Notes under the pieces: model-generated | Told to the model about the DNA's origin: nothing | Seen by the model: the letters and a program-made list of their open reading frames with translations, nothing else | Databases searched by the model: none | Source: Rhodoferax sp. | Lineage (GTDB): Bacteria > Pseudomonadota > Gammaproteobacteria > Burkholderiales > Burkholderiaceae_C | Assembly (NCBI GenBank): GCA_009693325.1 | Contig: SHXM01000004.1 | Location: forward strand, 1-44,734 | Direction of reading: 5' to 3' | Length of the DNA: 44,734 nucleotides | Translations under genes and position numbers: made by a program | Shown: positions 7,639 through 23,707 of the stretch, in pieces | Numbering within the stretch: the first letter of the stretch is position 1 | How the letters are laid out: the number at the start of each line of letters is the position of its first letter

Positions 7639-8649
7639 TCAGGCCTGCAGGGCCTGCCACATGGCCTGATCCCGCTCAGCGGTCCAGATGCGGGGGTGCT
7701 TGATGCCGCTTGCCTCGTCAAAAGCGCGCGTCACATCAAAGGGCAGGCAGTGCTCGTAGATGAACACATGGCCAAACAGGGGGTCCATGGTGTCGCGGGT
7801 ATGGGCCATTGCCGCTTTGAGGTCCAGGCCCAGCGCCACGCTCTCTTGGGCGCAGCGGTACAAGGCGTTTACCCAGCGGCGGGTGTAGTCCAGCGCCTTC
7901 GCCACATTGGCGGCACCTTGCATGGCTTCGCCGCGGCCCGGCACCAGGGCCCGGGCGTTTAGCGCACTCAGCGCGTCCAGCGTGGCCGGCCACTCTTGCA
8001 AATGGGCATCCCCGGTGTAAACCCCGGCCTCGTATTCCACCAAGTCGCCCGAGAACAGCACCCCCTCGGCGGCCACCCAGGCAATCGTGTCGCCCCGCGT
8101 GTGGCCGGGCCCGGGGTGCCAGATGTCAACCCGCACCCCGCCCAGGTCGAGTGTGAGCTTGCCTGGCACTTCACCGCGCGTGGGGTCGCCACCCCCGATG
8201 ACCAGGGTGGGCCAGGTCAGGCCGGGCACCGATTCAGCCCCGCGGAAGAGGCGCGGAAAACGCTCCATCTCGCTTTGCATGTCTTGCGCGCCGCGCTCGG
8301 TGATCAGGTCCAGCGTGCCTTGGCTGGCGATGACTTCGGTGGCGCCTTCGGCCACAAAGGCACTGGCACCGAGCACGCGCACCGCATGGTAGTGGGTGAG
8401 CAGCACATACTTGATCGGCTTGTCACTGACGCTGCGGATACGGGCAATCAACTCGCCAGCCATCGCCGGCGTGGCAGTGGCATCGCTGACCAAGATGAAT
8501 TTGTCCCCAATGATGACCCCGGAGTTGGGGTCTCCCTCTGCGGTGTAGGCCCAGCAATGGGCGCTGAGCTGCTCGAAGCTGGTTTTTTTGTCGGCCAGGT
8601 CTGACTGGGATGCGAAGGCTTTGGCGCTGCTGGCGGCGGGGGTCGACAT
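7639..8649 (-). CDS. Metallo-beta-lactamase-fold hydrolase with degenerate metal motif
   Basis: This 336-residue protein has the alpha-beta/beta-alpha metallo-beta-lactamase fold. The signature motif reads LLTHYHAVRVLGAS: the HxH pair is kept but the following Asp-His (HxHxDH) is replaced by Val-Arg. Later metal-binding positions look present in HPGPGHTRGDT (His) and LFSGDLVEYEAG (Asp). The usual late histidine region reads LVPGRGEA, without a histidine. This suggests a single-metal or altered site, as in some SoxH/quinoprotein-associated hydrolases; that comparison is from memory. No signal peptide is visible. It is the last gene of the 16-gene minus-strand cluster, after the HpaI aldolase gene with a 63-bp gap. 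A good AAGGAGAT ribosome-binding site precedes the ATG. A role in hydrolysing a thioester or lactone intermediate is inference. Confidence 0.85.
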   Translation of the reverse strand: MSTPAASSAKAFASQSDLADKKTSFEQLSAHCWAYTAEGDPNSGVIIGDKFILVSDATATPAMAGELIARIRSVSDKPIKYVLLTHYHAVRVLGASAFVAEGATEVIASQGTLDLITERGAQDMQSEMERFPRLFRGAESVPGLTWPTLVIGGGDPTRGEVPGKLTLDLGGVRVDIWHPGPGHTRGDTIAWVAAEGVLFSGDLVEYEAGVYTGDAHLQEWPATLDALSALNARALVPGRGEAMQGAANVAKALDYTRRWVNALYRCAQESVALGLDLKAAMAHTRDTMDPLFGHVFIYEHCLPFDVTRAFDEASGIKHPRIWTAERDQAMWQALQA

Positions 8650-8712
8650 GGCTCACATCTCCTTGTTGTGTAGCCAAGTTTAACGGCGGCCCCGGTGTCC
8701 CGCCCGGGGGTC

Positions 8713-9528
8713 TCAGTAGCTCATTGGCTTGCGCCCGCCCTGGGCTGCTTCTTTCAGGGCGCGGGTGATGATGGCGGTGGTGACGGTGGCAAAGTAGCGC
8801 GCGCCCCAGTCGGCATAGCGGTCCTCATCGGCGGGGCTCAGGGCCAACACGCCCGGGCACTTGCCCGCTGCCGCTACCGCCTTGAGGGTGCGCTCGATGG
8901 CAGCCTGCACCGGTGCCTCGTGGAAACGGTTCTCAAAGCCCATGCTGTGGGCCAAATCGTTGGGCCCGACAAACACCGCATCCACCCCGGGCACGGCGGC
9001 AATGGCAGCGGCATTGGCCACGCCCTCGGGGGTTTCCACCATCACCACCAATGCCACATCCTGGTTGCTGCGCTGGGTGTGCGCCGGCCCGCCAAAGGCG
9101 CCGTAGCCGGCGGCGCGGGTCGAAAACGCGCTGCCGCGCTGGCCGCTGATGCCCACCGCACCTGGCGGCAGGGGGTATTTGATGCGCTGCACCAGCGCGG
9201 CGGCATGGGCAGCCGTGTTCACCATCGGGATTTGCAGCGCACCGGCGCCAATGTCCAGGGTACGGGCAATGTCCTGCTCCAGACAACGCACCACCACGGG
9301 CAGCTGGCAGGCCCGGGCCGCGCGCAGCATGTTCTCGGTGCTCTCAATGCCGGCGCTGCCGTGCTCGTTGTCGATGATCAGAAAATCGAAACCGGCAAAA
9401 GCGCACATCTCTACCAGCGCCGGGGACGGAATGCCATTGAAGATGCCGCGCAGGCGCCCTGGGCTGCGCAGTAAATCAGACAGGCTGGTATCGAGCGGGC
9501 TTATCGATGGGCTCACGGTCGGCTCCAA
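8713..9528 (-). CDS. HpcH/HpaI family aldolase
   Basis: This 271-residue class II aldolase of the HpcH/HpaI/citrate-lyase family usually cleaves 2-keto-3-deoxy or 4-hydroxy-2-oxo acids to pyruvate plus an aldehyde, using a divalent metal. Visible family features are DFLIIDNEHGSAG (base region), PVVVRC, GALQIPMVNTAAHAA, the metal-binding MVETPEGVANAAAIAAVPG (Glu) and VFVGPNDLAHSMG (Asp). The arginine region near RGSAFSTRAAGYG fits the substrate carboxylate pocket. The length matches the family. The start overlaps the end of the MetE-like gene by 16 bp, so it belongs to the same transcript. In this cluster it would be the C-C cleavage step that feeds pyruvate to central metabolism. The true substrate is unknown; the family also includes 2-dehydro-3-deoxyglucarate aldolase and macrophomate-synthase-like enzymes. 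Confidence 0.92.
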   Translation of the reverse strand: MEPTVSPSISPLDTSLSDLLRSPGRLRGIFNGIPSPALVEMCAFAGFDFLIIDNEHGSAGIESTENMLRAARACQLPVVVRCLEQDIARTLDIGAGALQIPMVNTAAHAAALVQRIKYPLPPGAVGISGQRGSAFSTRAAGYGAFGGPAHTQRSNQDVALVVMVETPEGVANAAAIAAVPGVDAVFVGPNDLAHSMGFENRFHEAPVQAAIERTLKAVAAAGKCPGVLALSPADEDRYADWGARYFATVTTAIITRALKEAAQGGRKPMSY

Positions 9529-10709
9529 AGTTGATCACTGGCTATTTTGGCACCCTCGGCCATGCTGGCGAGTTTGGCAAAGCAGATTGGCGGGTGAATC
9601 GCGCCAAAGCCAGCAAAAGTGCCAAAGCCGCAGTCGGTGGCCGCCATCACGCGCTCGCGGCCCACAATGTCGGCATAGGTCAGCAGGCGCTGCGCCACCA
9701 GCCGCGGGTGCTCGATGAAGTTATTGACCGAATCCAGCACACCGGGCGCCAGTACTTTATGGTCGGCTATTCTGCCCTCGCGCCCGGCCTTGGCCCAGAC
9801 CTCCCACTCATGGGCGTGGCGCGGGTTGGCGCCCTCGAACAGCACCGTGGCAGGCTTGGCCTGCAGCACCACGTCGAGGATCTTCTCCAGCCCGATGTCA
9901 AAGTGGTGCGGACCCTCGTAATTGCCCCAGCACACATGCATGCGGATGCGCTCGGCCGGGATGTTGCGCAGCGCATGGTTGAGCGCTTCCACCTGCAGGT
10001 GAGCATTGCGCAAAAACTCGGCGTCGTCGACATCGCGGAACTTGATGTGCCGGCCCATGGCCAGGTCGGGCGCGTCGATCTGCAAATCCAGCCCAGCGGC
10101 CACGATTACCTCGTACTCGGTGGCCATGGCCTCGGCCAGCGCCTGCAGGTACTGCTCGGTGCTGGGGTAGTAGCGGTTGGGCTGAAACACCGCAATCACG
10201 CCGGGCGAGGCACTGTTCATGAAAGCACGCACCGGCGGCGCCTCACTGCCGCCCGCCTGCGCCACCGCTGCCTGCAGGTTGGCGATGTCCTTGTGCAGGC
10301 CACTCAGGTCTTTGACCGCAATCGGGCCGGTACAAATCGGGCGTTGGTATTTAGGCGTGGCGCCGAGCTTGGCCAGGCGCTCCTTGAAGTCAGGAAAATC
10401 GTCCAGGTCGCGCGGCGTGGCGCGCGGCATTTCTCCCAGCTCAAAGCCGCTCAGCCGGTGCCGAATGTAGGTGGCGTAAGAGATCTTGCTCATCTCACCG
10501 TCACTGACCACATCGACGCGGGACCCGGCTTGCCGGGCCACCACGGCGGCCACTTCGGCGGCCATGGTGGTGTCGAACTCGGCCTCGTTGTAGTTCAGGC
10601 CGCTGTCCTGGGCAAACAGCTGGGTCACAACCCGTTCCGGCCGCGGCAGGCTGCCGACATGGGTGGTGAGTATGCGTTGTGGCGCGGTGTTGAGCGGCGT
10701 GGTGTTCAT
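9513..10709 (-). CDS. MetE-like (cobalamin-independent methionine synthase II) zinc methyl/alkyl transferase
   Basis: This 398-residue protein resembles only the C-terminal catalytic barrel of MetE. Residues 11 onward (ILTTHVGSLPRP) match the start of that barrel. The four zinc ligands expected for the family are visible in order: His and Cys in RMHVCWGNYEG, Glu in VLFEGANPRH, and Cys in MAATDCGFGTF. MetE-family zinc activates a thiol for alkyl transfer; the same fold is used by methionine synthase and by epoxyalkane:coenzyme M transferase. There is no N-terminal folate domain, so a full MetE reaction is unlikely. The ATG at 10709 overlaps the stop of the bicupin gene as ATGA. A longer frame to 10889 was rejected because it only overlaps that gene. 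Embedded among catabolic enzymes, it may move a methyl or alkyl group from the substrate; this is inference. Confidence 0.9.
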   Translation of the reverse strand: MNTTPLNTAPQRILTTHVGSLPRPERVVTQLFAQDSGLNYNEAEFDTTMAAEVAAVVARQAGSRVDVVSDGEMSKISYATYIRHRLSGFELGEMPRATPRDLDDFPDFKERLAKLGATPKYQRPICTGPIAVKDLSGLHKDIANLQAAVAQAGGSEAPPVRAFMNSASPGVIAVFQPNRYYPSTEQYLQALAEAMATEYEVIVAAGLDLQIDAPDLAMGRHIKFRDVDDAEFLRNAHLQVEALNHALRNIPAERIRMHVCWGNYEGPHHFDIGLEKILDVVLQAKPATVLFEGANPRHAHEWEVWAKAGREGRIADHKVLAPGVLDSVNNFIEHPRLVAQRLLTYADIVGRERVMAATDCGFGTFAGFGAIHPPICFAKLASMAEGAKIASDQLWSRP

Positions 10710-11869
10710 CGTTGCGACCTGTCTGTGAAACGTTTGAGGGCAAGGTAACCGTTGGCGTCGATGGCGTAGCCGGCCTCGGCCGCGCGGGCCTGCACCGCTG
10801 GCACCCAGTCGATGGTCTTGCGGGCGTCGCCCGGTGTCATCATCAACAGCAAGGCCTCCGACTCGCCCACGTTGCGGTAGCGGCGCCAAACATTGGCCGG
10901 CATGGCAAAGCTGTCCCAGCCCTCGGTGTGGCCGTTTGCGATGCTGGTGATCGCGCTGCCTTGAATATCGCCTGTGTCTGGAGCCTGATTTGATACCTCA
11001 ATGGCCACCGCACCCCGGTGCACGGTGAGCACCTGCTGGCAGGCCAGGCGGTGCAGCGAGACCTGGCCACCTGCCGGGATCTTGAGCCACTCGATCGAGA
11101 AGCCGTGCGCGTTGCCGATGGGTGCTTGCTGGTCACGGTCTTGGCTCAGGCCAAAGCCGATCACCGGGGCGAGCTGGGCGCCGCAACCGGGCAGCGCGGC
11201 GTCAAGCAGCGCGCGGCTTGACCACTGCAGATCGGTGTGGCGCACCACACGCCGGCCCATTTGTTCGGGCGTCCAGCGGCGCAGCTGGGCGATCTCTTCG
11301 GGCGTCATGGGTTGCAGGCGGCGCATGGTTTGTTCGTCCCAGGTCTGGCCGAGTTGCTCGTCGATGATGCGGTAGTCTTCTGTCAGGTGCACGCCCTGCT
11401 CGCGCGCGGCCTGCAGGGTTTGCGGGCCCCACAGGATGCCGCCGGTGTCGTTTTGCCCCAGCGCGGTGAACATAAAGCCTTCGTCGTCCCCCACATTTTG
11501 AAAGCCGCGGTAAATCCAGGTCGGCATGCTGGCAATGTCGCCGGGGCCGATCTCAGCCTTGAGCGGCTCGGGGTTGAAGCCCCAGTGCAGGTTCCAGCGA
11601 CCTTTGGTGCAAATAAAAACCTCGGCCGTGAAGTGCATGTGCGGCGGGTTGATCTTGCCCGGAGGCATGGCCACGCCGCCGACCTGGAAGCCATGCTTTT
11701 CTCGCAGGCTCACCGGCTGGTCGGGGTTTTGCGACACGCCCGGCCCGATCAGCGCGTAGTTCTTCTTGGGTGCGCAGCCCGGAATGCGGTAGTCAAGGAA
11801 GGCCTCGGTGCTGTAGCGCAGGCCGTCAAAGGGAATAAAACGTTCGCGGATATGGGCTTCGGTCAACAT
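10706..11869 (-). CDS. Bicupin domain protein
   Basis: This 387-residue protein has two cupin barrels. The first (about residues 60-150) contains PPGKINPPHMHFTAEVFICTKG, with His-x-His and Glu positioned for metal binding, and ends with GDIASMPTWIYRGFQNVG. The second (about 240-350) contains IPAGGQVSLHRLACQQVLTVHRG and WDSFAMPANVWRRYRNVGESE, but only one histidine is kept at the metal motif, so this half is probably structural. Many bicupins are metal-dependent dioxygenases, isomerases or oxalate decarboxylases. Here the first domain could be catalytic. The size resembles gentisate-dioxygenase-like bicupins, but I cannot assign the reaction. Its stop overlaps the start of the MetE-like gene (ATGA), and the pair may act in sequence. 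A GGCACTC sequence precedes the ATG, without a strong Shine-Dalgarno. Confidence 0.85.
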   Translation of the reverse strand: MLTEAHIRERFIPFDGLRYSTEAFLDYRIPGCAPKKNYALIGPGVSQNPDQPVSLREKHGFQVGGVAMPPGKINPPHMHFTAEVFICTKGRWNLHWGFNPEPLKAEIGPGDIASMPTWIYRGFQNVGDDEGFMFTALGQNDTGGILWGPQTLQAAREQGVHLTEDYRIIDEQLGQTWDEQTMRRLQPMTPEEIAQLRRWTPEQMGRRVVRHTDLQWSSRALLDAALPGCGAQLAPVIGFGLSQDRDQQAPIGNAHGFSIEWLKIPAGGQVSLHRLACQQVLTVHRGAVAIEVSNQAPDTGDIQGSAITSIANGHTEGWDSFAMPANVWRRYRNVGESEALLLMMTPGDARKTIDWVPAVQARAAEAGYAIDANGYLALKRFTDRSQR

Positions 11870-11937
11870 GGGAGTGCCTTGAGTGAATGAGCTTGGTGGT
11901 CGCTAAGCCAAAGGAGCCGATGGCGGGCGCGGCTGGG

Positions 11938-12630
11938 TCAGGCCTGCAGCCATTGCCGCAGGGCCAGGCTCAAGCGCCCGGGTGCTTCGAGGGGTACAAA
12001 ATGCCCGACACGGGGGAGTTCCAGCCAACGCGCGGCCGGTTGGGCCTGCAGCATTTCTCGCTGCCAGGCCGCAGGGCACAGGCGATCGTGTTCGCCGCTG
12101 ACGAGCAACAGCGGGCCACCAAAATCGTGCAGTGCGGGCAAGCTGTCCGGGCGCGAGGCGGCCCAGGCAAACTCGGCGCGTGCCGCCTGACGGGGCGTGC
12201 CATCGGCCATGGCCCGCACCAGCGGCCCATGGCGCTGGCGCTGGCTCGGGTGGTGAAAGTAAGCCGGCTTGGCACCACGCGCCACGGCCGCCGGGCCCTC
12301 ACGCTGCCAGACGCGCCACTGGTCGGCACTGCGGCGGCGTGCGCGCCCGCTGGCGGGCCTGGCATTGCTGGCGATCAGGGCCAGCCGCTGCACCCGCTGC
12401 GGCGCACGGCGCAGCAGCTCCAGCGCCCACAGGCCGCCCAGTGAAAAGCCGGCAATGGAGAACTGTTCGGGCAGCTCGCCCAGCAGGCGATCGAGCCAGG
12501 CGCCAGACCGGTCCAGGCCAGCATAGTCGAGCGCGCGCAGGTCTGCCACATCGCGCAGCGCGCGGCACTGGTGCCGGAAAATCCGCGCATCGCACAGGGT
12601 GCCTGGCAACAGCAGCAGCGTCGGTTTCAT
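11938..12630 (-). CDS. Alpha/beta hydrolase
   Basis: This 230-residue alpha/beta-hydrolase-fold protein has the expected catalytic triad: nucleophile elbow GFSLGG (Ser near residue 83), acid in VSGEHDRLCP and histidine in RVGHFVPLEAPG. The N-terminal LLLLPGTLCDARIF forms the first strand and oxyanion turn. It would hydrolyse an ester, thioester or lactone in the cytoplasm. The cap region is short (about residues 105-160, rich in Arg and Gln), giving a compact enzyme like carboxylesterases or 3-oxoadipate enol-lactonases. Its ATG overlaps the stop of the SnoaL-like gene upstream as ATGA (12627-12630), so translation is coupled. There is a 68-bp gap to the bicupin gene. The substrate is unknown; within the cluster it could open a lactone or release an acyl group. 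Confidence 0.88.
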   Translation of the reverse strand: MKPTLLLLPGTLCDARIFRHQCRALRDVADLRALDYAGLDRSGAWLDRLLGELPEQFSIAGFSLGGLWALELLRRAPQRVQRLALIASNARPASGRARRRSADQWRVWQREGPAAVARGAKPAYFHHPSQRQRHGPLVRAMADGTPRQAARAEFAWAASRPDSLPALHDFGGPLLLVSGEHDRLCPAAWQREMLQAQPAARWLELPRVGHFVPLEAPGRLSLALRQWLQA

Positions 12631-13667
12631 GACCAGTCCTGCAAGGTCAGCGGTGCGCGGGCCTGGTTGAACTCGCGCATGCGCGCCAGCACATCGACCC
12701 CAACTTGCCGGTGCACATGCAACAGGTCCACCAGCACCCAGTTCTCACGGATCAAGCCGTTTTCGCAGCGCCAAAAATCCAGGCTGCGCATGGTGATTTG
12801 CTGGCCCGCCGGGGCAATGCCCAGCCAGCCGTCACCGCTGATGGTGGCTTGCATATTGGGCCAGCCGCTCACCGCGACAAAGTCGCCGTCGGCAAAGAAC
12901 TCGCCTTTGCCGCCTGTGCCCCGGCGGTCGGGCATGCCGTTCAAAAACGGGATTTGGTGCCAATGGCGAAAGCCGGCAATGCCACGCCCGGTGCCGATGC
13001 CCGAGGGGCCGTACCAGCTCATGCGGGGGTGCCAATACTTCTCCAACCGCATGGCGGCTACACCGCCGGTGGCATACAGGGACAGACCCGCCAACATGTC
13101 CAGCACCAGCTGCAAACTGCGCTCAGCACGCGCCGCATCGCGCGGGCCCGCCACCAAACCATCTTGCGTGGCCGGCCCCGGCACCTGCCACTCTCGGCCC
13201 AGGCTGGGCGCCATCGGCCAGGCACCGGCCTGCAACATCAGCTCGGGGATGTCCCACAGAGCCTGCATCTCCACCACCTTGCCGTCGACCATGCGATAAA
13301 ACTCATGAAAGCGCATCGCCACCTGGTGCCCGGTGGGGGGGATGTTCAACCAGGGCCGCACAAAGGTGCCGGTATAAAAGCCGCAGCAGCCTACCCAGTC
13401 GTGCCCCTGCGGGCTGGTGCCGGCCATCACAATGGTGTCGCGCCGCTCCAGATCTGGAATGGCTTGCTGCAAGGGCAGGTAAGCTTGTTGGTACAGGCCC
13501 TGCGGCCCATCCAGGTCCTCAAACGGCGTGGCCAGATGCACCACCGCGTCAGGCCGGAACAGCTGCATCAGCGCCACGCGCACCGCCTCGGCTTCATAGT
13601 TGTATTGGGCTGCGCGCAAGGGCACCAGCGCCGCTTTGTTGCGCGCATGGACATCGTGTGTGCTCAT
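12627..13667 (-). CDS. Tandem SnoaL/NTF2-like domain protein (346 aa)
   Basis: This protein consists of two NTF2/SnoaL-like cone-shaped alpha+beta domains, roughly residues 20-165 and 185-335. Family signs are DAVVHLATPFEDLDG, WLNIPPTGHQVAMRFHEFYRMVDGKV in the first domain, and WLGIAPAGQQITMRSLDFWRCENG plus LIRENWVLVDLLHV in the second. The C-terminal motif (IRENWV, then VDVLARM) is shared with the product of 22646-23707, and less closely with that of 20673-21209. Single-domain SnoaL relatives are polyketide cyclases, ketosteroid isomerases or dehydratases, so an isomerase, dehydratase or binding role is plausible. No signal peptide is visible. It lies 4 bp from the ABC permease gene and overlaps the hydrolase gene by four bases. 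The specific function is unknown. Confidence 0.82.
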   Translation of the reverse strand: MSTHDVHARNKAALVPLRAAQYNYEAEAVRVALMQLFRPDAVVHLATPFEDLDGPQGLYQQAYLPLQQAIPDLERRDTIVMAGTSPQGHDWVGCCGFYTGTFVRPWLNIPPTGHQVAMRFHEFYRMVDGKVVEMQALWDIPELMLQAGAWPMAPSLGREWQVPGPATQDGLVAGPRDAARAERSLQLVLDMLAGLSLYATGGVAAMRLEKYWHPRMSWYGPSGIGTGRGIAGFRHWHQIPFLNGMPDRRGTGGKGEFFADGDFVAVSGWPNMQATISGDGWLGIAPAGQQITMRSLDFWRCENGLIRENWVLVDLLHVHRQVGVDVLARMREFNQARAPLTLQDWS

Positions 13668-13671
13668 GGTC

Positions 13672-14502: not shown

Positions 14503-14506
14503 GGTC

Positions 14507-15535: not shown

Positions 15536-15545
15536 GCGGCAGGGC

Positions 15546-16814: not shown

Positions 16815-16838
16815 GAGATTCTCCAAAAAGGCCGGGGG

Positions 16839-17903
16839 TTAATTGGCTTCTAGACGCAGCCGGTTCTGCGTCTGGCCATCAAAAATATGACATTGTTGGG
16901 CGCTGACGGCAAAGCCTGCCGGCTCGCCAATGCGGGCGCGGTAGTCCTTGCCGGCACGCGCGGTGACCACCTGCTCGCCGATGCGCACCATCACCAGGGT
17001 GGAGTCGCCGGTCAGCTCAAAGCTGAACACCTCGGCGCGAATTTGGGCCTGCTCAGGTGCGGCCACCGCCATGTCCTCGGCGCGCACGCCCAGAACCACG
17101 TCCACGCGGCTCTGCGTGCCAAAACCCGGCACCGACACACCTGGCGCCTCAAACACCCCGTCGCGCAGCGCCCCGGCGATCAGGTTCATCGAGGGTGAGC
17201 CGATGAAGCCCGCCACAAATAGGTTGGCGGGCTGGTTGTAGATCACCTCGGGCGTGCCAATTTGCTGGATCTCGGCGCGGCTCATCACCACCACCCGGTC
17301 GGCCAGGGTCATGGCCTCGATCTGGTCGTGCGTGACGTAAATGGTGGTCACCCCCAAGGTGTGGTGCAGGTGCTTGATGTGGGAGCGCATGGTGACGCGC
17401 AGCTTGGCGTCCAGGTTGCTTAGTGGCTCATCCATCAAAAACACCTTGGGCTGGCGCACGATGGCGCGGGCCAGCGCCACCCGCTGGCGCTGGCCGCCCG
17501 ACAACTCTTTGGGCCGGCGGTCCAGGTAGTCAGTCAGCTCCACCTGCGCTGCGGCTTTGAGCACCGCCGGCCTGATTTGCGCCCCCGGCATGCCGCGGAT
17601 GCGCAGCGGAAAGCTGATGTTCTCCTCCACCGTCATATTGGGGTACAGGCCGTAGCTTTGGAACACCATGGCCACATCACGGTCCTTGGGCTCCAGGTTG
17701 TTGACGCAGCGGTCGCCAATCCAGACCTCGCCGGTGCTGGGGTCTTCCAAGCCGGCCACCATGCGCATGGTGGTGGTCTTGCCGCAGCCGCTGGGGCCGA
17801 GCAGCACCAAAAATTCACCGTCGGCAATGTCGAGCGACATTTGCTTCACGCCCACGGCATTGCCCCAGGATTTGGACAGGTCTTTGAGCTCAACGCGGGC
17901 CAT
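16839..17903 (-). CDS. ABC transporter ATP-binding protein, CUT1 (UgpC/MalK-like)
   Basis: This 354-residue ATPase energises the importer. Walker A is GPSGCGKTT (near residue 38), the Q-loop lies in MVFQSYGLYPNMTVEENI, the signature is LSGGQRQRVALARA, and Walker B is VFLMDEPLSNLDAKLR, followed by the switch histidine in YVTHDQIEAMTLADRV. After residue ~240 comes a C-terminal OB/TOBE regulatory domain (SPSMNLIAGAL, then VVLGVRAEDMAV and a QVVTARAGKDYRARIGEPAGF end) as in MalK and UgpC. These domains mark CUT1 carbohydrate and glycerol-phosphate importers. It is 9 bp after the SnoaL-like gene of 17913-18869 and 24 bp before the binding-protein gene, within the same run. Family assignment is firm; substrate is not. 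Confidence 0.95.
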   Translation of the reverse strand: MARVELKDLSKSWGNAVGVKQMSLDIADGEFLVLLGPSGCGKTTTMRMVAGLEDPSTGEVWIGDRCVNNLEPKDRDVAMVFQSYGLYPNMTVEENISFPLRIRGMPGAQIRPAVLKAAAQVELTDYLDRRPKELSGGQRQRVALARAIVRQPKVFLMDEPLSNLDAKLRVTMRSHIKHLHHTLGVTTIYVTHDQIEAMTLADRVVVMSRAEIQQIGTPEVIYNQPANLFVAGFIGSPSMNLIAGALRDGVFEAPGVSVPGFGTQSRVDVVLGVRAEDMAVAAPEQAQIRAEVFSFELTGDSTLVMVRIGEQVVTARAGKDYRARIGEPAGFAVSAQQCHIFDGQTQNRLRLEAN

Positions 17904-17912
17904 GTTGCTGCC

Positions 17913-18869
17913 TCAAGCCTGCGGCGCCAGGACTTGCATCCAGATCGCCACCTCGTCAACCAACAACCACTCGCGCAGCACCCGCCCGTTGGCAAATTCA
18001 GCATGCGAGATGCCCATGATCTCCACCGTGTTGCCACTGGGCTCCCCATAGCGGCCCGGGCCAGCGTGCCGGGCCCGCACCCGCCAGCGCATGGCCACCG
18101 CCGGGTTGCGCTCAGCGCGGCGTACTTCGGCCAAGTGCTCAAGCTCGAACTGCGCGCCATCAAAGGCCGCCAGCAGATCGGCCCAAAAGTCCCGTATAGC
18201 GAGGTGTCCGTACAAACTCTGGCCAGCAGGTGCCGCCATCACACTGGCTCGGTCATGCAACTGAAGCACGCCATCGAGACCCTGGCCATGCCACAGCTGT
18301 TCATACAGGCCCAGGTAAGCCCGGGCAAGGGCCCCAGAGGCGATGTGCGAGCGGTAGGCACCCGGAACCGGCGGCATAGGCGGCTTGGCAATCGGTCCGC
18401 GCTGGGCCAGCCAGGCCTGGGCCAGGTCCCGCTCATGCAAGCCGATCTGCCGGGCAATCGCGGCCTGATCGCGCACCAGCCACTCATGGATGACACGGTT
18501 ATCCAGGCAAACGCAGTCGGCAATGGTGCGGGCATGGATGCGCCGAGCGCTGGCCGGGCCAAAGGCGCCGTCGCCCATATGCGTCATGGGCGAGAGAATC
18601 CGGTGAGATGACAGAAATCCGTGCTCGTCATCACCCGACCAAAGCACATCTTCAGCGAGCAGTTCGCGGTCAGGGAACATGACCAAGGTGGCCCGGGTCG
18701 AGTCCACCACCGGTCCGGCGCCCAGGCTCACGCCGCCGGGGGTCTCCACCGCACAATCGGCGCCGTAGTAGCGGTAAATATCGTCGATGCGCCGACCTTC
18801 CCAAATACGCTGGGTGATGACCCGAATATAGTGGTCAAGGTCCAGGAATTCGGCATCAAAACCCTTCAT
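17913..18869 (-). CDS. SnoaL/NTF2-like domain protein (318 aa)
   Basis: This 318-residue protein has two NTF2-like regions. The first (about residues 10-135) includes RRIDDIYRYYGADCAVETPGG and VDSTRATLVMFPDRELLAEDVLW. The second (about 170-305) includes YEQLWHGQGLDGVLQLHD, IRDFWADLLAAFDGAQFELEHL, AMRWRVRARHAG and REWLLVDEVAIWMQVLAPQA. The end resembles the polyketide-cyclase/limonene-epoxide-hydrolase-like subset of the SnoaL superfamily. It has no signal peptide or membrane segment. The ATG at 18869 is preceded by GAGGAG at 8-base spacing and overlaps the LacI-type gene stop as ATGA (18866-18869). A GTG at 18878 is possible but lies on the ribosome-binding site. It differs from the other SnoaL-like proteins in the cluster and lacks their VDVLAR end. 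Function unknown. Confidence 0.82.
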   Translation of the reverse strand: MKGFDAEFLDLDHYIRVITQRIWEGRRIDDIYRYYGADCAVETPGGVSLGAGPVVDSTRATLVMFPDRELLAEDVLWSGDDEHGFLSSHRILSPMTHMGDGAFGPASARRIHARTIADCVCLDNRVIHEWLVRDQAAIARQIGLHERDLAQAWLAQRGPIAKPPMPPVPGAYRSHIASGALARAYLGLYEQLWHGQGLDGVLQLHDRASVMAAPAGQSLYGHLAIRDFWADLLAAFDGAQFELEHLAEVRRAERNPAVAMRWRVRARHAGPGRYGEPSGNTVEIMGISHAEFANGRVLREWLLVDEVAIWMQVLAPQA

Positions 18870-19897
18870 GTCGCGCACTCCTCGTGTCGGTTTTGGCAGG
18901 AGCCGCGCAGCACCAACTGCCCGGCAATCACAATGTTGCGGGTGTTTGGCATGTCGTCCCCGCGCAGGTAGCTTTGAAGCAGCTCCACCGTGGCCTCCAC
19001 CATGGGCTGCACCGGCTGCTCAAAGGTGGTCAAGGCGTAGGATTCCCAGGCCGCTTGCGGCACATTGTCAAACCCCACCACCGACACCTGCTGGGGAACC
19101 GCCAGGCCGAGCTCATGGCGCAGGGTATCGAGCACCGCTATGGCCATCTGGTCGCTTGCGACAAACACCGCGTCCGGTCGCTGCTCGGCTTGGGCAAACA
19201 GGTCGCGCGTGGCCTGCCTGGCTTGAAGCACGTCATAGTTGCCGATTGCACGGGCATAGATGCGCTGGCCAGCCTCGGCCAAACCCTCCCGAAAACCCCG
19301 CTCCCGCTCCAGGTTGGTCGATGAATCCTCCCGCCCGGCCAGGTAGGCAATGCGCCGGTGGCCGCCAGCCACCAGAAAGCGGGCAATCTCACGCCCGCCG
19401 CCCACGTTGTCAGAGCGTACCGAGCTCACCGAGCCGGCACTGCCCGCGGCCATGATGCGGTTGAACAGCACCACCGGAATGCTGGCATCGGCGCAGCGCT
19501 GCGCCAAGGCGGAGGACAGGGTGGTGGCGCCCAGCACAATGCCATCGACCTTGTACTGCAGAATCTCGCCCACCAGGTCATCGGCGTTATGCCCATCGCT
19601 GATAAATATCAGCAGGTGGTAGCCATCCTGTTGCAGCCGCTGTGCCAGTTGCTCGAGCACCGCCGGGTAAAACAGGTTTTCGATGTGGGACAGCACCAGG
19701 CCGATGATGCGCGAGCGCCCCGTGATCAGGCTGCGGGCATGGGCGTTGGGCTGGTAGCCCAGCTTGCGCGCAGCCTCCTGCACCTTGTTGCGCATGGCCT
19801 CCGAAACACTGGCGCCAGCGGTGAAACAGCGGCTCACCGCCGACTGCGACACACCGGCCAGGCGCGCCACATCGAGCGAGGTGGCCTGCGTCTTCAT
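18866..19897 (-). CDS. LacI family transcriptional repressor
   Basis: This 343-residue repressor has an N-terminal helix-turn-helix (TSLDVARLAGVSQSAVSRCF, residues ~6-25), a hinge helix NAHARSLITG, and a periplasmic-binding-protein-like effector domain (residues ~62-340). That domain includes GLVLSHIENLFYPAVLEQLA, VSSVRSDNVGGGREIARFL, DAVFVASDQMAIAVLDTL and VSVVGFDNVPQAAWESYALTTFEQP. It binds DNA as a dimer and would release it on binding the imported compound or a metabolite. The two palindromes at 22573-22588 and 23789-23804 have the even, CG-centred dyad typical of LacI operators and are its likely sites. The gene lies inside the operon it probably controls, overlapping both neighbours by four bases (19894-19897 and 18866-18869), so repressor and enzymes are co-produced in a feedback loop. 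Confidence 0.95.
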   Translation of the reverse strand: MKTQATSLDVARLAGVSQSAVSRCFTAGASVSEAMRNKVQEAARKLGYQPNAHARSLITGRSRIIGLVLSHIENLFYPAVLEQLAQRLQQDGYHLLIFISDGHNADDLVGEILQYKVDGIVLGATTLSSALAQRCADASIPVVLFNRIMAAGSAGSVSSVRSDNVGGGREIARFLVAGGHRRIAYLAGREDSSTNLERERGFREGLAEAGQRIYARAIGNYDVLQARQATRDLFAQAEQRPDAVFVASDQMAIAVLDTLRHELGLAVPQQVSVVGFDNVPQAAWESYALTTFEQPVQPMVEATVELLQSYLRGDDMPNTRNIVIAGQLVLRGSCQNRHEECAT

Positions 19898-20676
19898 TGC
19901 GCCGTCCAGCCGCCGTCAACCATCAGCGCGCTGCCAGTCACCATGGCCGAGGCATCGCTGGCCAGGAACACCACCGCGCCCATGATGTCCTCGACCCGGC
20001 CGATGCGGCCCAGGGCAATGCGGGATTCGACAAAAGCCCGGAATTGCGCATCTTTGAGCATAGGCCGGGTCAGCTCTGTCTCTATAAAGGTCGGGCACAG
20101 GGTGTTGACCCGGATGTTTTGCCCGCCAAGCTCCCAGGCCAATGCCTTGCACAGACCCTCTAGCGCATGCTTGCTGGCGCAATAAAGCGTGCGTTTAGGG
20201 CCGCCCACATGCCCCATTTGAGAGGAAACATGAATGATGGAGCCGGCCTGCCCAAGCGCACTAAGGCCGCGCGCGACCTCGCGCGAAAGAAAAAATGCCG
20301 CCTTGATATTCACCGCCAGCACCGCATCGATGTCCTCTGCGGTGGTGTCGGCCAGCAGCTTTGGGCGGTTGGTGCCAGCGCTGTTGACCAGGATTTGAAA
20401 CGGCCCCCTGGCCGCGAGTTCCCGCTGCACCGCCAGCGCATCGGTGACATCGAGTGCCAGCACCTGGGCACGCCCACCCGCCTGCCCAATGGCCGCTGCC
20501 GCCTGCTCGAGTTCTGACACGGTGCGCGCCGCCAGCGTCACCTCAGCGCCGGCCTGCGCCAGGGCCTGGGCTGCCGCCAGACCAATGCCGCGGCCGGCAC
20601 CCGCCACCAGGGCACGCCGGCCATCCAGCCGGAACGAAGGGGTCATGGCCACAGAGCCTGCGCCGGGACGGCTCAT
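19894..20676 (-). CDS. Short-chain dehydrogenase/reductase (SDR)
   Basis: This 260-residue classical SDR has a Rossmann cofactor motif GAGRGIG (residues ~27-33), NSAGTNRP, the catalytic serine in IIHVSSQMG, and the YxxxK pair in YCASKHALEG. The end is MVTGSALMVDGGWTAQ. It should oxidise or reduce a secondary alcohol with NAD(P). The acidic residue usual for NAD preference is not clear after the second strand (LAARTVSELE suggests NADP). The start at 20676 overlaps the upstream stop as ATGA; an internal ATG at 20646 (MTPSFRLDG) is an alternative. Next to the HisD-like enzyme it suggests a two-step oxidation of a polyol-like substrate. The substrate is unknown. Confidence 0.93.
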   Translation of the reverse strand: MSRPGAGSVAMTPSFRLDGRRALVAGAGRGIGLAAAQALAQAGAEVTLAARTVSELEQAAAAIGQAGGRAQVLALDVTDALAVQRELAARGPFQILVNSAGTNRPKLLADTTAEDIDAVLAVNIKAAFFLSREVARGLSALGQAGSIIHVSSQMGHVGGPKRTLYCASKHALEGLCKALAWELGGQNIRVNTLCPTFIETELTRPMLKDAQFRAFVESRIALGRIGRVEDIMGAVVFLASDASAMVTGSALMVDGGWTAQ

Positions 20677-21209
20677 GCTGCGGGCTGCAGGCGCGGCGGT
20701 GCACGCTCGCCCCGGTCAAAGGCCTCCCAGCCCTCGCCCTGAAACGGATCAACGCCCAGTTGCTGCATCACGTGAGCAAAATCCACCGACACCCAGTTGT
20801 CCACAATCTTGCCGTCCTGCACCTTCCAGAAATCCATGTAGCGGATCTCGATGCGTTTGCCGGTGGGCGCAATGCCCATGAAGGTGCCGGTGTGTGTGGC
20901 CTCTTGCCGCCCAAAGGCGGCCATCCACTCGCCCTGCACGATGCGGGCCTCGTCAATGCACACCTTGTCAGAAAACGCAGCCTGGAACGGGCGCTGCCAG
21001 TTGTCCTGGAACGCCTTGACACCCAGCTTGGTGCCGCAGCCGGCGTTGCCCAGCCAGCGAAAGTCTTTGGCAAAAAACGCCTCAATGCCGTCGATGGTGT
21101 GGTCGTTCAGGCCGTCCACCATGCCCTCCACCACACGGCGGGTGGCCTCGGTCTGGGACAGGTCGTTGTCGCGCGTGAGCGCTGCCTGTTCGGGGCGGGC
21201 CCCTTTCAT
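20673..21209 (-). CDS. SnoaL-like ester cyclase family protein (178 aa)
   Basis: This single-domain SnoaL/NTF2-like protein fits the ester-cyclase-type family: [67 protein letters not shown] and [20 protein letters not shown]. The final stretch matches, with gaps, the end of the tandem-domain proteins in the same cluster, so the four probably share ancestry. The cone-shaped fold binds hydrophobic or carbonyl ligands and can catalyse isomerisation, dehydration or aldol cyclisation. The start at 21209 gives an ATGA overlap with the HisD-like gene stop (21206-21209); the longer frame to 21416 was rejected because it lies in that gene. No signal peptide. Function within the pathway unknown. Confidence 0.85.
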
Positions 21210-22534
21210 GCTGGTCCGTCCAGCGCCGGCACGGGCTGGTACCAGGGCACCTCGGCGCGGTCGCCGTAGCGGCGCACCCGCAGGTTGGCCTGCTCGCCGT
21301 GGCCAGCAAAGTTTTCCATGTGGCACAGGCGCGAGCAAACCTCGCCAATGCTGGCACTGGCCGCATCGGTCAGCACCCGCTGGTAGGTGCAGGTTTTGAG
21401 AAACTTGCCGACCCACAGGCCACCGGTGTAACGGGCTGATCTGTTGGTGGGCAGGGTGTGGTTGGTGCCGATCACCTTGTCGCCAAAGCTCACGTTGGTG
21501 CGCGGGCCCAGGAACAGCGCGCCAAAATTGGTCATGCGCTGCAAGAAGTAATCCGGGTCACGCGTCATCACCTGCACATGCTCGGAGGCGAGCTCATCGG
21601 CCTTGGCCAGCATTTCCTCATCGCTGTCGCAGACGATGACCTCGCCATAGACCTCCCAGGCCTTGCCGGCAATGGCGGCAGTGGGCAATATCTTGAGTTG
21701 CCGCTCCACCTCTGCCATGGTGTCGCGCGCCAGTTTTTCAGAGGTGGTCAGCAGCACCGCAGGCGAGGTGGGCCCGTGCTCGGCCTGGCCCAGCAGGTCC
21801 ACCGCGCACATTTCGCCGTCGACTGATTCGTCGGCGATCACCAGGGTCTCGGTCGGGCCGGCGAACAGGTCGATGCCAACCCGGCCATACAACTGGCGCT
21901 TGGCCTCGGCCACAAACATATTGCCCGGGCCCACCAGCATGTCCACCGCCGCCACCGATTCAGTGCCGATGGCCATGGCGGCCACCGCCTGCACCCCGCC
22001 CAACACCAAAATTTGGTCAGCCCCCGCAAAGTGCATGGCCGCCACGATGGCCGGGTGCGGCGCACCCTGGTAGGGCGGCGCGGTAGCCACCACGCGCGGC
22101 ACGCCGGCCACCTTGGCGGTCAAAACGCTCATGTGGGCCGAGGCAATCAGGGGGTACTTGCCCCCGGGAACGTAGCAGCCCGCCGCGTTGACCGGGATAT
22201 GCCGGTGCCCCAGGATCACGCCGGGCAGGGTTTGCACCTCGACATCGCGCAGGCTGTCGCGCTGAATCTGTGCAAAGTTGCGGATCTGGGTTTGCGCGAA
22301 CCGGATGTCTTCAATTTCGCGCGCCGAGAGCCGTCCAACGGCAGCCTCGATATCTGCCTGCGACAAAGCGAAGCTGGCTGGGTCCCAGCCATCGAACTTG
22401 CGGCTGTATTCGCGCACGGCGGCGTCGCCGCGTTGCTCTATGTCTTTCAGGATGCCCTCCACCGTGGCGCGCACCTGCGCGTCGTCGTCGGCCCGGCCCT
22501 GGGCGTCTTTGCCGCGTTTGAGATATCGAATCAT
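21206..22534 (-). CDS. Histidinol-dehydrogenase-like NAD+ dehydrogenase (HpsN-type catabolic paralogue)
   Basis: This 442-residue enzyme of the HisD family performs NAD+-dependent oxidation of a primary alcohol through an aldehyde to a carboxylate. The zinc ligands of E. coli HisD are all matched: Gln and His in [11 protein letters not shown], Asp in [15 protein letters not shown], His in [13 protein letters not shown]. The catalytic Glu-His pair is in ASEHVQV. No other histidine genes are nearby and the neighbours are catabolic, so this is a catabolic paralogue. In the same family, HpsN (sulfopropanediol 3-dehydrogenase) oxidises dihydroxypropanesulfonate; the product may act on a related polyol. 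The ATG at 22534 (MIRYLKRG) was chosen because the upstream in-frame extension runs through the operator palindrome. Only a weak GGGGTGC precedes it. Confidence 0.88.
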
Positions 22535-22572
22535 GACCACTGCACCCCGGTTGATCTTGCCCAAAAAATTTC

Positions 22573-22588
22573 TTGCATACGTATGCAA
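22573..22588. promoter_or_regulatory. Probable LacI-family operator 1 (TTGCATACGTATGCAA)
   Basis: This is a perfect 16-bp palindrome, TTGCATACGTATGCAA, in the 111-bp gap between the SnoaL-like gene (stop at 22646) and the HisD-like start at 22534. It ends 38 bp upstream of that start. The even dyad with central CG is the usual shape for LacI-family operators, in which the hinge helices insert at the centre. An almost identical copy lies at 23789-23804. On the minus strand a TTTACA hexamer sits just before the palindrome, so the site would cover or abut the promoter. The assignment to the LacI protein encoded at 18866-19897 is inference from co-location and form. Confidence 0.75.
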
Positions 22589-22645
22589 TGTAAAACAAAA
22601 AAAGGCTTTGGGTATTGGTAGTTTCCCGTAATTGGTGGGGCCAGA

Positions 22646-23707
22646 CTAGCCGCGCCGGGCAAACTGGCTACGCACCCGGGCCAGCACATCGACATCGAGC
22701 TGCAGCAGCACATTGATGAGGTCGATCGGCACCCAGTTCTCCCGGATCAGGCCCTGTTCGGCGCTGTAAAAGTCCATCACCCGCATGGTGATGGCGCGCC
22801 CGGTGGGCGGCAGGCCCAGCCAGCCACCGCCCTGGTGCAGCATGTGCCGGCTCGGCCAGCCGCCGGTGGCCGAGAAACGACCGTCCCCGATGCGCACGTA
22901 GTGGCTGCCCCCGTGCTGACCCATGCCCACGGGCTGAGGCAGCTTGGGGTCGCGCGGGAAGGCGGTGCGAAAGGGCAGCTGGTGCACATCGACAAAACCA
23001 TCGAGCCCGCGCGAGGTACCAATGCCGCTGGGGCCAAACCACATCATGTGCGGGTGCCAAAACTCGCGCTGCGGCATCGCCAGCAGGCCCTCGCGCCCCA
23101 AATTGAGCGTGTCGTCATAGGCACCCAAAGAAGCCTGCATGGCCAGGCTCAAGGCCAGGCTGGCGGCCGACTCCTGCGGATCCTGCGCCGAGAGCACCAG
23201 GCCATCAGCGGCCAGCGGGCCGGGCCACATGCCCTCAAAACCCGGGCTTGGCGGCAGCGGCCAAAAACCCATCTGGCGAACCGCGTCCAGCACATCGAGC
23301 AGCACCGTGCTTTGCACAATGCGCCCGTCCACCAGCTGGTGGAACTCGCCGTAGCGCAAATACAGCAGCTGCCCGGTCGCCGGCAGGCCCAGCCAATCGT
23401 GCTGAAAACACCCGCACAGGTGACCCACTGCGCCCACATAATCGCGCCCCTGGTACTGGCCGCCGATCAGCAACTGCTCGCGCCGCTCCATATCCGGGAA
23501 GGCGTGCAGCAGGGGCTGCCAGAACATCTGCGCAATGGCCGCCACGCCCTGCACTTCATTCCAGGGGTGCGAACCACGCCACTCGGCATCCGGGTGGTAG
23601 GCCTGCGCCAGCAGCCCTGGCGCGGCCGCCGGCCCGCCGTGTACCAAACTACCCATGATGGACCGGACCCAATCTTTGCTGGCCAGCTTGGTGGCTTCAT
23701 TCAACAT
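22646..23707 (-). CDS. Tandem SnoaL/NTF2-like domain protein (353 aa)
   Basis: This protein has two NTF2/SnoaL-like domains: residues ~15-165 with FPDMERREQLLIGGQYQGRDYVG and WLGLPATGQLLYLRYGEFHQL, and residues ~190-345 with EGLLAMPQREFWHPHMMWFG and WLGLPPTGRAITMRVMDFYS. The C terminus, LIRENWVPIDLINV then LQLDVDVLARVRSQF, closely resembles the product of 12627-13667. The middle stretch MMWFGPSGIGTSRGLDGF is also matched there (MSWYGPSGIGTGRGIAGF). These two are therefore paralogues within one cluster. Each has an internal duplication of about 150 residues, probably giving a pseudo-dimer. There is no signal peptide. A ribosome-binding site GGAGCCGCAGC lies before the ATG. This is the first gene of the run, with operator 2 about 80 bp upstream. 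Biochemical role unknown. Confidence 0.83.
   Translation of the reverse strand: MLNEATKLASKDWVRSIMGSLVHGGPAAAPGLLAQAYHPDAEWRGSHPWNEVQGVAAIAQMFWQPLLHAFPDMERREQLLIGGQYQGRDYVGAVGHLCGCFQHDWLGLPATGQLLYLRYGEFHQLVDGRIVQSTVLLDVLDAVRQMGFWPLPPSPGFEGMWPGPLAADGLVLSAQDPQESAASLALSLAMQASLGAYDDTLNLGREGLLAMPQREFWHPHMMWFGPSGIGTSRGLDGFVDVHQLPFRTAFPRDPKLPQPVGMGQHGGSHYVRIGDGRFSATGGWPSRHMLHQGGGWLGLPPTGRAITMRVMDFYSAEQGLIRENWVPIDLINVLLQLDVDVLARVRSQFARRG

What the first reader, a model, noticed from the sequence alone, without database searches (positions are those of the whole stretch)
7639..23707. Sixteen-gene co-directional catabolic cluster with an unidentified substrate
Seen in the sequence: 16 minus-strand genes with small gaps or overlaps encode a CUT1 importer, LacI repressor, HisD-like and SDR dehydrogenases, four SnoaL-like proteins, alpha/beta hydrolase, bicupin, MetE-like transferase, HpaI aldolase and MBL-fold hydrolase. 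Known family roles suggest the order import, alcohol oxidation to acid (HisD-like, SDR), rearrangement (SnoaL, cupin), ester or lactone opening, and aldol cleavage to pyruvate. I know no described pathway with this exact combination. Inference: catabolism of a polyol-, sugar- or sulfonate-like compound, possibly methylated.
Basis: partly seen in the sequence, partly recalled or inferred. Interest (0 to 1): 0.8.

Follow-up and report, generated by a model that had tools for sequence, protein, structure and literature searches.

The report
Undescribed polyol-like catabolic operon
A block of about fifteen bacterial genes appears to import and break down a still unknown sugar-alcohol-like compound, and because much the same gene set recurs in quite different bacteria it points to a common environmental nutrient whose breakdown pathway I could not find described.

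Summary
The 16 minus-strand genes exist as described. Fifteen (8713-23707) form a conserved catabolic unit; the sixteenth (MBL hydrolase, 7639-8649) had no relative in the other loci then held and is probably a bystander. Of 80 loci fetched with one SnoaL gene, 31 carry HisD-like, SDR, LacI, bicupin and alpha/beta-hydrolase genes together. A 16-bp LacI-type palindrome stands before hisD-like and, with two mismatches, before the first gene; these are the only such sites in the genome bin, and 18 of the 31 relatives also hold one. The HisD-like enzyme is not the sulfonate enzyme HpsN: it and 59 relatives compared lack the sulfonate-binding histidine, and this bin carries a separate HpsN and a separate HisD. 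It belongs to a third subgroup of unknown substrate. Best reading: a LacI-controlled pathway for a non-sulfonate polyol- or sugar-like compound. HisD-like and SDR enzymes oxidise it, bicupin and hydrolase rework it, and an HpaI or RraA aldolase releases pyruvate. The roles of the SnoaL and MetE-like proteins and the substrate are unproven. Six literature searches aimed at this gene set showed no matching pathway.

The parts
22646..23707 (-). double-domain SnoaL-like protein (SnoA)
   Evidence: PF07366, two stretches; best-matching family for 30-85% relatives in many of the fetched loci
21206..22534 (-). HisD-family dehydrogenase, third subgroup with motif GKYPL; E320/H321 and zinc-ligand positions Q252, H255, D354, H414 invariant in 53 sequences (numbering from 22540)
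20673..21209 (-). single-domain SnoaL-like protein (SnoS)
   Evidence: PF07366; 69-80% identity in roseobacter-type and several gammaproteobacterial loci, 34-51% in six others
19894..20676 (-). SDR dehydrogenase, Ser152/Tyr165/Lys169 invariant in 55 sequences
18866..19897 (-). LacI-family repressor
17913..18878 (-). double-domain SnoaL-like protein (SnoB)
   Evidence: PF07366, two stretches
16839..17903 (-). CUT1 ABC transporter ATPase, UgpC/MalK type
   Evidence: above the NF008653 cut-off
15546..16814 (-). periplasmic substrate-binding protein (start 16814 or 16826)
   Evidence: nearest solved 5iai E 1.4e-13, SmoF 2.7e-11, sorbitol SBP 4rya 1.2e-9
14507..15535 (-). CUT1 permease 1
13672..14502 (-). 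CUT1 permease 2
   Evidence: start chosen by eye from the translation
12627..13667 (-). double-domain SnoaL-like protein (SnoC), the marker used to fetch relatives
   Evidence: 240 relatives, 80 kept; AlphaFold2 pLDDT 91.4; NTF2/SnoaL fold
11938..12630 (-). alpha/beta hydrolase; S63 and H210 invariant, D182 nearly so, in 52 sequences
10706..11869 (-). bicupin; H76, H78, E82 and R120 invariant in 34 sequences; the two halves share secondary-structure order
9513..10709 (-). MetE catalytic-domain-like transferase; zinc-type residues H258, C260, E292, C360 invariant in 40 sequences
8713..9528 (-). HpaI-type class II pyruvate aldolase; H56, R81, E165, D191 invariant in 28 sequences
7639..8649 (-). 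MBL-fold hydrolase, probably not part of the conserved unit
   Evidence: PF00753; no relative at E<=1e-3 in the other loci then held
22573..22588 (.). perfect palindrome TTGCATACGTATGCAA, presumed LacI operator upstream of hisD-like
23789..23804 (.). second presumed operator (2 mismatches) upstream of SnoA

Best explanation
The genes at 8713-23707 form a LacI-repressed catabolic regulon for a small, non-sulfonated, polyol- or sugar-like compound, perhaps one released by aquatic phototrophs. The CUT1 ABC transporter imports it. The SnoaL/NTF2-fold proteins, helped by the MetE-like zinc protein, convert the imported compound into the substrate of a five-enzyme core; this step is inferred. In the core, the HisD-like enzyme oxidises a terminal CH(OH)-CH2OH group to a carboxylate with two NAD+, and the SDR oxidises a carbinol to a ketone. 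The bicupin and the alpha/beta hydrolase then isomerise or dehydrate and open a lactone or C-C bond. The HpaI-type aldolase (RraA in roseobacters) cleaves the resulting 4-hydroxy-2-keto acid to pyruvate and an aldehyde. Shown here: co-inheritance of the genes, shared operator sites in part of the relatives, conserved catalytic residues, and failure of the HpsN membership test. Inferred: substrate class, step order, and the roles of the SnoaL and MetE-like proteins.
For: Gene content: of 80 loci fetched with SnoC alone, 46 carry the same HisD-like group (60% identity or more); of these 42 also SDR, 42 LacI, 43 SnoB, 37 hydrolase, 36 bicupin, 35 SnoS, 27 MetE-like; 31 of 80 have HisD, SDR, LacI, bicupin and hydrolase together. 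A small core LacI/HisD/SDR/MFS/hydrolase/HpaI/bicupin stands on a Klebsiella plasmid with no SnoaL gene found and on a Pantoea plasmid beside a second HisD-like and two SnoaL/NTF2 genes. Operator: at up to 2 mismatches the 16-mer occurs only at the two cluster sites in the 2.77 Mb bin, with 0 for the reversed control; 43 of 88 loci scanned hold at least one site with up to 3 mismatches, 82 sites in all against 2, 5 and 6 in three shuffles. In one Rubrivivax genome the four sites with up to 2 mismatches fall on the SnoA-HisD cluster, on a separate LacI-ABC-hydrolase-bicupin locus (two sites) and 17 bases before a MetE-like gene. Replaceable parts: HpaI/RraA and ABC/sodium symporter/MFS. Catalytic residues conserved. 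Importers nearest to sugar/polyol SBPs. The bin has a separate HisD and HpsN and MetH.
Against: No gene names a substrate. 23 of 80 SnoC loci carry none of the five core genes, and in Rhodobacteraceae and Rhizobiaceae SnoC stands beside class III alcohol dehydrogenase and GlpK-like genes or an aldo/keto reductase, so SnoC also occurs outside this set. MetE-like is absent from the Paracoccus cluster, so it may not be essential. Operator: 13 of the 31 five-gene loci have no site with up to 3 mismatches, mostly gammaproteobacterial ones such as L021, L026, L028, L035, L041, L061, L062; in 12 relative genomes there were 25 sites against 4 for the reversed control, and 2 of 12 had none. In Colwellia polaris one-mismatch sites precede TonB receptors and a pullulanase, so the consensus is of a general LacI type. 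Shuffles kept only base composition, and many loci are closely related Ruegeria. SBP similarity is remote.
Confidence: 0.6

Rival explanations
1. The cluster degrades DHPS or another sulfonate, with the HisD-like protein acting as HpsN.
For: HpsN is the closest solved relative: 383 bits against 257 for the best histidinol dehydrogenase. One remote SBP match is the sulfoquinovosyl-glycerol binder SmoF. The bin has an Xsc match above its cut-off, cut by a contig end. Lys of the sulfonate contact (Lys353 of HpsN) is kept in the FGDK stretch.
Against: The HpsN motif G-R-Y-A/S-H, whose His binds the sulfonate (PMC11382572, passages read), is GKYPL here and G-[KR]-[YF]-P-[LMI] in 60 of 60 group members including the window. 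The same bin has a better HpsN (570 bits, motif GRYAH) beside a taurine-type SBP above cut-off. No desulfonating enzyme was seen among the 16 genes.
Confidence: 0.04
2. The substrate is a methylated carbocyclic polyol of the mycosporine/4-deoxygadusol type: MetE-like removes the methyl group, HisD-like oxidises the ring CH2OH, SnoaL proteins dehydrate, bicupin and hydrolase open the ring, HpaI/RraA cleaves a 4-carboxy-4-hydroxy-2-keto acid.
For: Many carriers are aquatic by record title or source, one Ruegeria from Galaxea fascicularis, one haloarchaeon from a saltern. RraA replaces HpaI. MetE-like/NTF2 pairs lie near a GcvT-like protein (LigM type, recalled), metF and purU in sphingomonads. 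L-serine dehydratase lies in 5 of 80 loci. The chemistry of the ring is recalled, not from a call.
Against: No MAA-related gene was seen in the cluster, and the listings of two searches showed no MAA catabolic gene (15 of 23 and 15 of 578 papers listed). The importer is sugar/polyol-like. The core occurs in enterobacteria and rhizobia. The fold search gave oxalate decarboxylase/vicilin-type bicupins, not ring-cleaving dioxygenases, among the 50 rows shown.
Confidence: 0.07
3. The substrate is a deoxy- or O-methyl sugar or sugar acid handled by a non-phosphorylative route (dehydrogenase, lactonase, dehydratase, pyruvate aldolase).
For: An amidohydrolase of fuconolactonase type in 26 of 80 loci; an L-fucose-isomerase-like gene in the Chloroflexi locus L053; LacI and CUT1; HpaI relatives include 2-keto-3-deoxy acid aldolases.
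Against: No classical sugar-acid dehydratase is present among the 16 genes, and a 4-electron HisD-type step is not needed in those routes (family knowledge). The amidohydrolase scores 120 bits against a 400-bit fuconolactonase cut-off and is absent from the window cluster.
Confidence: 0.2
4. The genes are a loose neighbourhood or a tailoring pathway for a natural product rather than one catabolic route.
For: SnoaL proteins are best known from polyketide biosynthesis; nearest folds include IdmH, ChaU, SnoaL2 and polyether epoxide hydrolases. SnoC occurs without the core in 23 of 80 loci.
Against: Importer plus LacI plus pyruvate aldolase; no synthase among the 16 genes; operator sites before dispersed pathway genes in Rubrivivax.
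Confidence: 0.09

Closest known systems
HpsN, sulfopropanediol (DHPS) 3-dehydrogenase, with the DHPS operon of roseobacters and Cupriavidus
   Same: HisD-fold zinc dehydrogenase, 45% identical to this bin's own HpsN, same catalytic Glu/His and zinc-ligand positions, and an SDR partner as in HpsO/HpsN operons (PMC11131964, passages)
   Different: sulfonate-binding motif absent in 60 of 60; importer is CUT1 rather than a sulfonate transporter; SnoaL, bicupin, MetE-like and aldolase genes added
Histidinol dehydrogenase HisD
   Same: family and active-site residues; hydrophobic residue at the last motif position
   Different: separate HisD next to a HisG-like ORF elsewhere in the bin, 36% identical to the window protein; no his genes here
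HpaI / RraA class II pyruvate aldolases
   Same: metal and catalytic residues conserved; the two replace each other between otherwise similar clusters
   Different: the curated HpaI, GarL and rhamnonate-aldolase models score below cut-off, so the substrate is untyped
MetE catalytic domain / epoxyalkane:CoM transferase-type zinc thiol transferases
   Same: partial PF01717 match and invariant H-x-C...E...C; the CoM transferase comparison is recalled
   Different: no solved relative by phmmer at E<=0.01; MetH present in this bin
SnoaL-type cyclases and NTF2-fold hydrolases or dehydratases
   Same: fold and PF07366
   Different: tandem double-domain form in a catabolic operon with an importer; the two-domain PDB matches align at about 15-17 A rmsd, so only the single-domain folds agree

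Membership tests
HpsN (DHPS 3-dehydrogenase) | motif G-R-Y-A/S-H with the sulfonate-binding His126 | tested here: not met
   window GKYPL; 60 of 60 group members lack the His; own-genome HpsN has GRYAH
HpsN (DHPS 3-dehydrogenase) | catalytic Glu318/His319 and Asp352 of the HisD fold | tested here: met
   E320, H321, D354 invariant in 53 sequences
HpsN (DHPS 3-dehydrogenase) | sulfonate transporter or desulfonation genes in the operon | tested here: not met
   none seen among the 16 genes
HisD (histidinol dehydrogenase) | sits with histidine biosynthesis genes | tested here: not met
   HisD on C109 at 528 bits lies after a HisG-like ORF (HisG by eye); none in this cluster
HisD (histidinol dehydrogenase) | motif G-S-A-P-L | tested here: inconclusive
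   last residue Leu/Met as in HisD, but G-K-Y/F-P-L/M overall; this bin's own HisD reads GKAAY, so the HisD motif itself varies
MetE-type zinc methyl/alkyl transferase | zinc ligands H-x-C, E, C (ligand pattern recalled) | tested here: met
   H258, C260, E292, C360 invariant in 40 sequences
MetE-type zinc methyl/alkyl transferase | curated methionine synthase model | tested here: not met
   best 85 bits against a 406 cut-off
SnoaL polyketide cyclase family | NTF2/SnoaL fold and PF07366 | tested here: met
SnoaL polyketide cyclase family | polyketide cyclase activity | not testable with these tools
   needs assay
Class II pyruvate aldolase (HpaI) | metal and catalytic residues (pattern recalled) | tested here: met
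   H56, R81, E165, D191 invariant in 28 sequences
LacI-controlled catabolic operon | palindromic operator at the promoters, confined to the operon | tested here: met
   2 sites in the 2.77 Mb bin at up to 2 mismatches, both in the cluster; but only 18 of 31 relatives with the five genes hold a site
LacI-controlled catabolic operon | repressor binds the site and is released by a pathway ligand | not testable with these tools
   needs EMSA

The most novel reading that the evidence does not exclude
This regulon is the first genetic route for breaking down a methylated carbocyclic sunscreen-type polyol (mycosporine or 4-deoxygadusol core) of aquatic phototrophs. A third class of HisD-family dehydrogenase oxidises the ring CH2OH, SnoaL proteins dehydrate the ring, the bicupin and hydrolase open it, and an HpaI or RraA aldolase ends the route.
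Probability: 0.07. Interest if true: 0.85.

Novelty: new variant of a known kind. Interest (0 to 1): 0.52.

Why it matters
A LacI-type pathway shared by bacteria of several classes, with partial versions in enterobacteria, rhizobia and a haloarchaeon, implies a common nutrient not yet matched to these genes. The HisD-family subgroup has a motif (G-K-Y/F-P-L/M) that separates it from HpsN, so annotations of such proteins as 'histidinol dehydrogenase' or 'hpsN' (seen) are probably wrong and can be corrected. The operator sequence and the small core give a direct way to find the substrate.

Tried and rejected
Sulfonate/DHPS reading: rejected by motif and by the separate HpsN. MBL as a pathway member: dropped, no relative at E<=1e-3 in the other loci then held. 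Colwellia polaris operator-like sites as a clue to the substrate: they precede TonB receptors and a pullulanase, and the C. polaris cluster itself (L028) had no site with up to 3 mismatches, so I read them as a different LacI regulon. SnoC neighbours in Rhodobacteraceae (class III ADH, GlpK-like) and Rhizobiaceae (aldo/keto reductase, MraW, TerB): judged mostly unrelated to the window pathway. Bicupin fold search: only general oxalate-decarboxylase/vicilin-type matches, TM about 0.5, no function. Rfam: no match in the window. tRNA: none. MetE-like neighbourhoods in two haloarchaea, Pantoea and Rhodococcus gave no common substrate. Papers: passages read in PMC11131964, PMC11382572, PMC5374385 and PMC11423573 (their 'ester cyclase' is the unrelated Mg-protoporphyrin enzyme); all other papers seen only as search listings with the start of the abstract.


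Full report
What is there. Between 7639 and 23707 all sixteen genes run on the minus strand with coding-type GC3, gaps -16 to +105 bp. In transcription order: SnoA (double SnoaL), HisD-like, SnoS (single SnoaL), SDR, LacI, SnoB (double SnoaL), MalK-type ATPase, binding protein, two permeases, SnoC (double SnoaL), alpha/beta hydrolase, bicupin, MetE-like, HpaI aldolase, MBL. The window lies on contig C51 of a 2.77 Mb bin in 190 contigs, 89% complete.

Is it a unit? I fetched relatives with SnoC alone; 256 stretches matched, 240 encode relatives, 80 were kept. Of those 80, 46 carry the same HisD-like group at 60% identity or more; among these 46, 42 have the SDR, 42 LacI, 43 SnoB, 37 the hydrolase, 36 the bicupin, 35 SnoS and 27 the MetE-like gene. 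31 of 80 have HisD, SDR, LacI, bicupin and hydrolase together; 23 of 80 have none of the five. Identity thresholds for the other families were 25-45%, and many loci are cut by contig ends. L002 (Rhodoferax) keeps all fifteen genes in the window's order and L003 fourteen of them. In L005 and L006 the cluster stands beside glmU as in the window. Within the window's family it is rare: 2 of 250 genomes including its own at E<=1e-90, and the two same-genus genomes listed lack it. In the order, 8 of 300 at E<=1e-50, the best matches outside its own genome being only 40-46% identical. The pattern is patchy and cross-class, so horizontal transfer is likely, though I made no tree.

Boundary. The MBL gene (7639-8649) has no tblastn match at E<=1e-3 in the other loci then held. 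L005 has a transporter-like ORF in the corresponding place. I leave it out of the unit.

Modules. Annotated plasmid records show how the set is built. Three roseobacter plasmids carry it with RraA in place of HpaI, two of them with an amidohydrolase. A Paracoccus plasmid has it without MetE-like. A sodium symporter family gene occurs in 17 of the 80 loci, mostly gammaproteobacterial. A small core of LacI, HisD-like, SDR, MFS transporter, hydrolase, HpaI and bicupin stands on a Klebsiella plasmid, and on a Pantoea plasmid beside a second HisD-like gene, an ester cyclase and an NTF2 gene. Sinorhizobium medicae has ABC, HisD-like, SDR, LacI, cupin, RraA, amidase, hydrolase and one ester cyclase. 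Vibrio and Salinivibrio have TRAP, otnK, aldolase, otnI, bicupin, HpaI and hydrolase without HisD or SDR. A haloarchaeon has ABC, aldehyde dehydrogenase, MBL, five ester cyclases and MetE-like. In Aminobacter the HisD-SDR pair stands with a CoA ligase. I read this as two modules: SnoaL plus MetE-like upstream, and HisD, SDR, bicupin, hydrolase and aldolase downstream.

Regulation. A perfect 16-bp palindrome lies at 22573-22588 before hisD-like, and a copy with two mismatches at 23789-23804 before SnoA. The window expectation at up to 3 mismatches is 0.11; 1 of 100 shuffles had two or more. In the whole bin, at up to 2 mismatches, these are the only two sites, with 0 for the reversed control. 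Of 88 loci scanned (80 and 8 chosen plasmid loci), 43 hold at least one site at up to 3 mismatches, 82 sites in total against 2, 5 and 6 in three mononucleotide shuffles; the nearest cluster gene is mostly MalK, SnoA or HisD. In a Rubrivivax genome the four sites at up to 2 mismatches fall on the SnoA-HisD cluster, on a separate LacI-ABC-hydrolase-bicupin locus (two sites) and 17 bases before a MetE-like gene. This ties the MetE-like gene, the hydrolase and the bicupin to the HisD cluster even where they are not neighbours. Against: 13 of the 31 five-gene loci have no such site, among them L003, and L005 whose upstream part is not held; 12 relative genomes gave 25 sites against 4 for the reversed control, and 2 of the 12 gave none; in Colwellia polaris similar sites precede TonB receptors and a pullulanase, so the consensus is not unique to this repressor.

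The HisD-like enzyme. HpsN is its closest solved relative, 383 bits against 257 for the best histidinol dehydrogenase. The HpsN structure paper gives a motif that tells the two families apart, G-R-Y-A/S-H in HpsN and G-S-A-P-L in HisD, the final His binding the sulfonate (PMC11382572, passages read). The window protein reads GKYPL, and 60 of 60 group members including the window (62 aligned less the two own-genome paralogues) read G-[KR]-[YF]-P-[LMI]. The group was chosen by similarity to the window protein, and many rows are closely related. The bin has two other HisD-family genes. One, on C181, is a clear HpsN: 570 bits, motif GRYAH, one ORF away from a taurine-type binding protein above its cut-off. 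The other, on C109, follows a HisG-like ORF (by eye) and is 36% identical to the window protein. The window enzyme is therefore neither; zinc-ligand positions and catalytic Glu/His are intact. I call it a third subgroup with unknown substrate.

Other enzymes. Catalytic residues are invariant in HpaI (28 sequences), the MetE-like zinc site (40) and the SDR (55); in the hydrolase (52) S63 and H210 are invariant and D182 nearly so. The SnoC model (pLDDT 91.4) is a tandem NTF2/SnoaL fold; nearest solved folds are two-domain polyether epoxide hydrolases (domain arrangement different, rmsd about 15-17 A) and the SnoaL-type proteins AclR, IdmH, ChaU and SnoaL2. The bicupin model (pLDDT 90.7) resembles oxalate decarboxylase and seed storage bicupins at TM about 0.5. 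Its N-terminal half keeps H76, H78 and E82, with Arg120 where a fourth His is usual in cupins (the usual motif is recalled). The MetE-like protein stands beside NTF2 proteins and near a GcvT-like protein, metF and purU in sphingomonads, and MetH is present in this bin, so methionine synthesis is not its likely job.

Mechanism and substrate. I commit to a polyol- or sugar-like, non-sulfonated compound oxidised at a terminal diol, reworked, and cleaved to pyruvate. The importer's nearest solved relatives include sugar and polyol binders (5iai, SmoF, a sorbitol SBP), all remote; the second Rubrivivax importer gives a similar list at higher scores. Many record titles and sources name aquatic genera or hosts, which suggests a phototroph product; I did not tabulate habitats, and the core also occurs in soil and plant-associated bacteria. 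The mycosporine reading is a chemical guess with low probability.

Known or new. Six searches of the held open-access library were aimed at the gene set; four returned no or only three papers, and one search listed 20 of 91. None of the titles and abstracts shown describes this pathway, and two candidate papers were checked and concern another 'ester cyclase'. Two further searches were on HpsN and two on mycosporines. Subscription papers are mostly not in that library. I rate it a new variant of a known kind: a LacI/CUT1 catabolic operon with a new HisD subgroup and an unusual SnoaL/MetE-like upper part.

Noticed in passing
G000 contig C181, L135:7799-9127: A genuine HpsN orthologue (motif GRYAH) followed by a PLP-aminotransferase-like ORF and a taurine-type ABC binding protein, suggesting sulfonate use elsewhere in this genome; an Xsc match above cut-off lies at the end of contig C121.
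   Followed up: partly
window 36108-36776 and 36836-37243 (minus) versus 29038-30216 (plus): By eye, two minus-strand ORFs look like the two parts of a paralogue of the sensor-type protein at 29038-30216, about 60 bases apart: either a broken gene or an assembly error. Described only.
   Followed up: no
window 39302-44620: An acyl-CoA ligase, a lactonase-like beta-propeller protein (SMP-30 type by eye) and a tripartite-transporter type binding protein (by eye) stand close together, perhaps a second catabolic locus.
   Followed up: no
L097 (Halobellus limi plasmid): A haloarchaeal cluster with ABC importer, aldehyde dehydrogenase, MBL hydrolase, five ester cyclases and a MetE-like gene, i.e. 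the upper module without HisD, bicupin or aldolase.
   Followed up: partly
L102 and L109 (sphingomonad plasmids): MetE-like plus NTF2 plus IclR genes near a GcvT-like protein, metF, purU and folD, linking this MetE-like family to one-carbon metabolism.
   Followed up: partly
L099 and L100 (Vibrio, Salinivibrio plasmids): Bicupin, HpaI and hydrolase follow otnK-aldolase-otnI with a TRAP transporter and no HisD or SDR, suggesting an acid enters the same lower route.
   Followed up: no
L160:1912-15276 (Colwellia polaris): A starch-type locus (TonB receptors, pullulanase, tryptophan-halogenase-like protein, aldo/keto reductase) carries operator-like sites close to those of the window cluster.
   Followed up: partly
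L161 (Rubrivivax genome, contig C125): By eye, the operator-bearing MetE-like gene lies between a glmU-like and a CCA-transferase-like ORF, i.e. perhaps the same chromosomal neighbourhood in which the window keeps the whole cluster.
   Followed up: no
window 10706-11869: The two halves of the bicupin model share the same order of secondary-structure elements, consistent with an internal duplication whose second metal site has degenerated.
   Followed up: no
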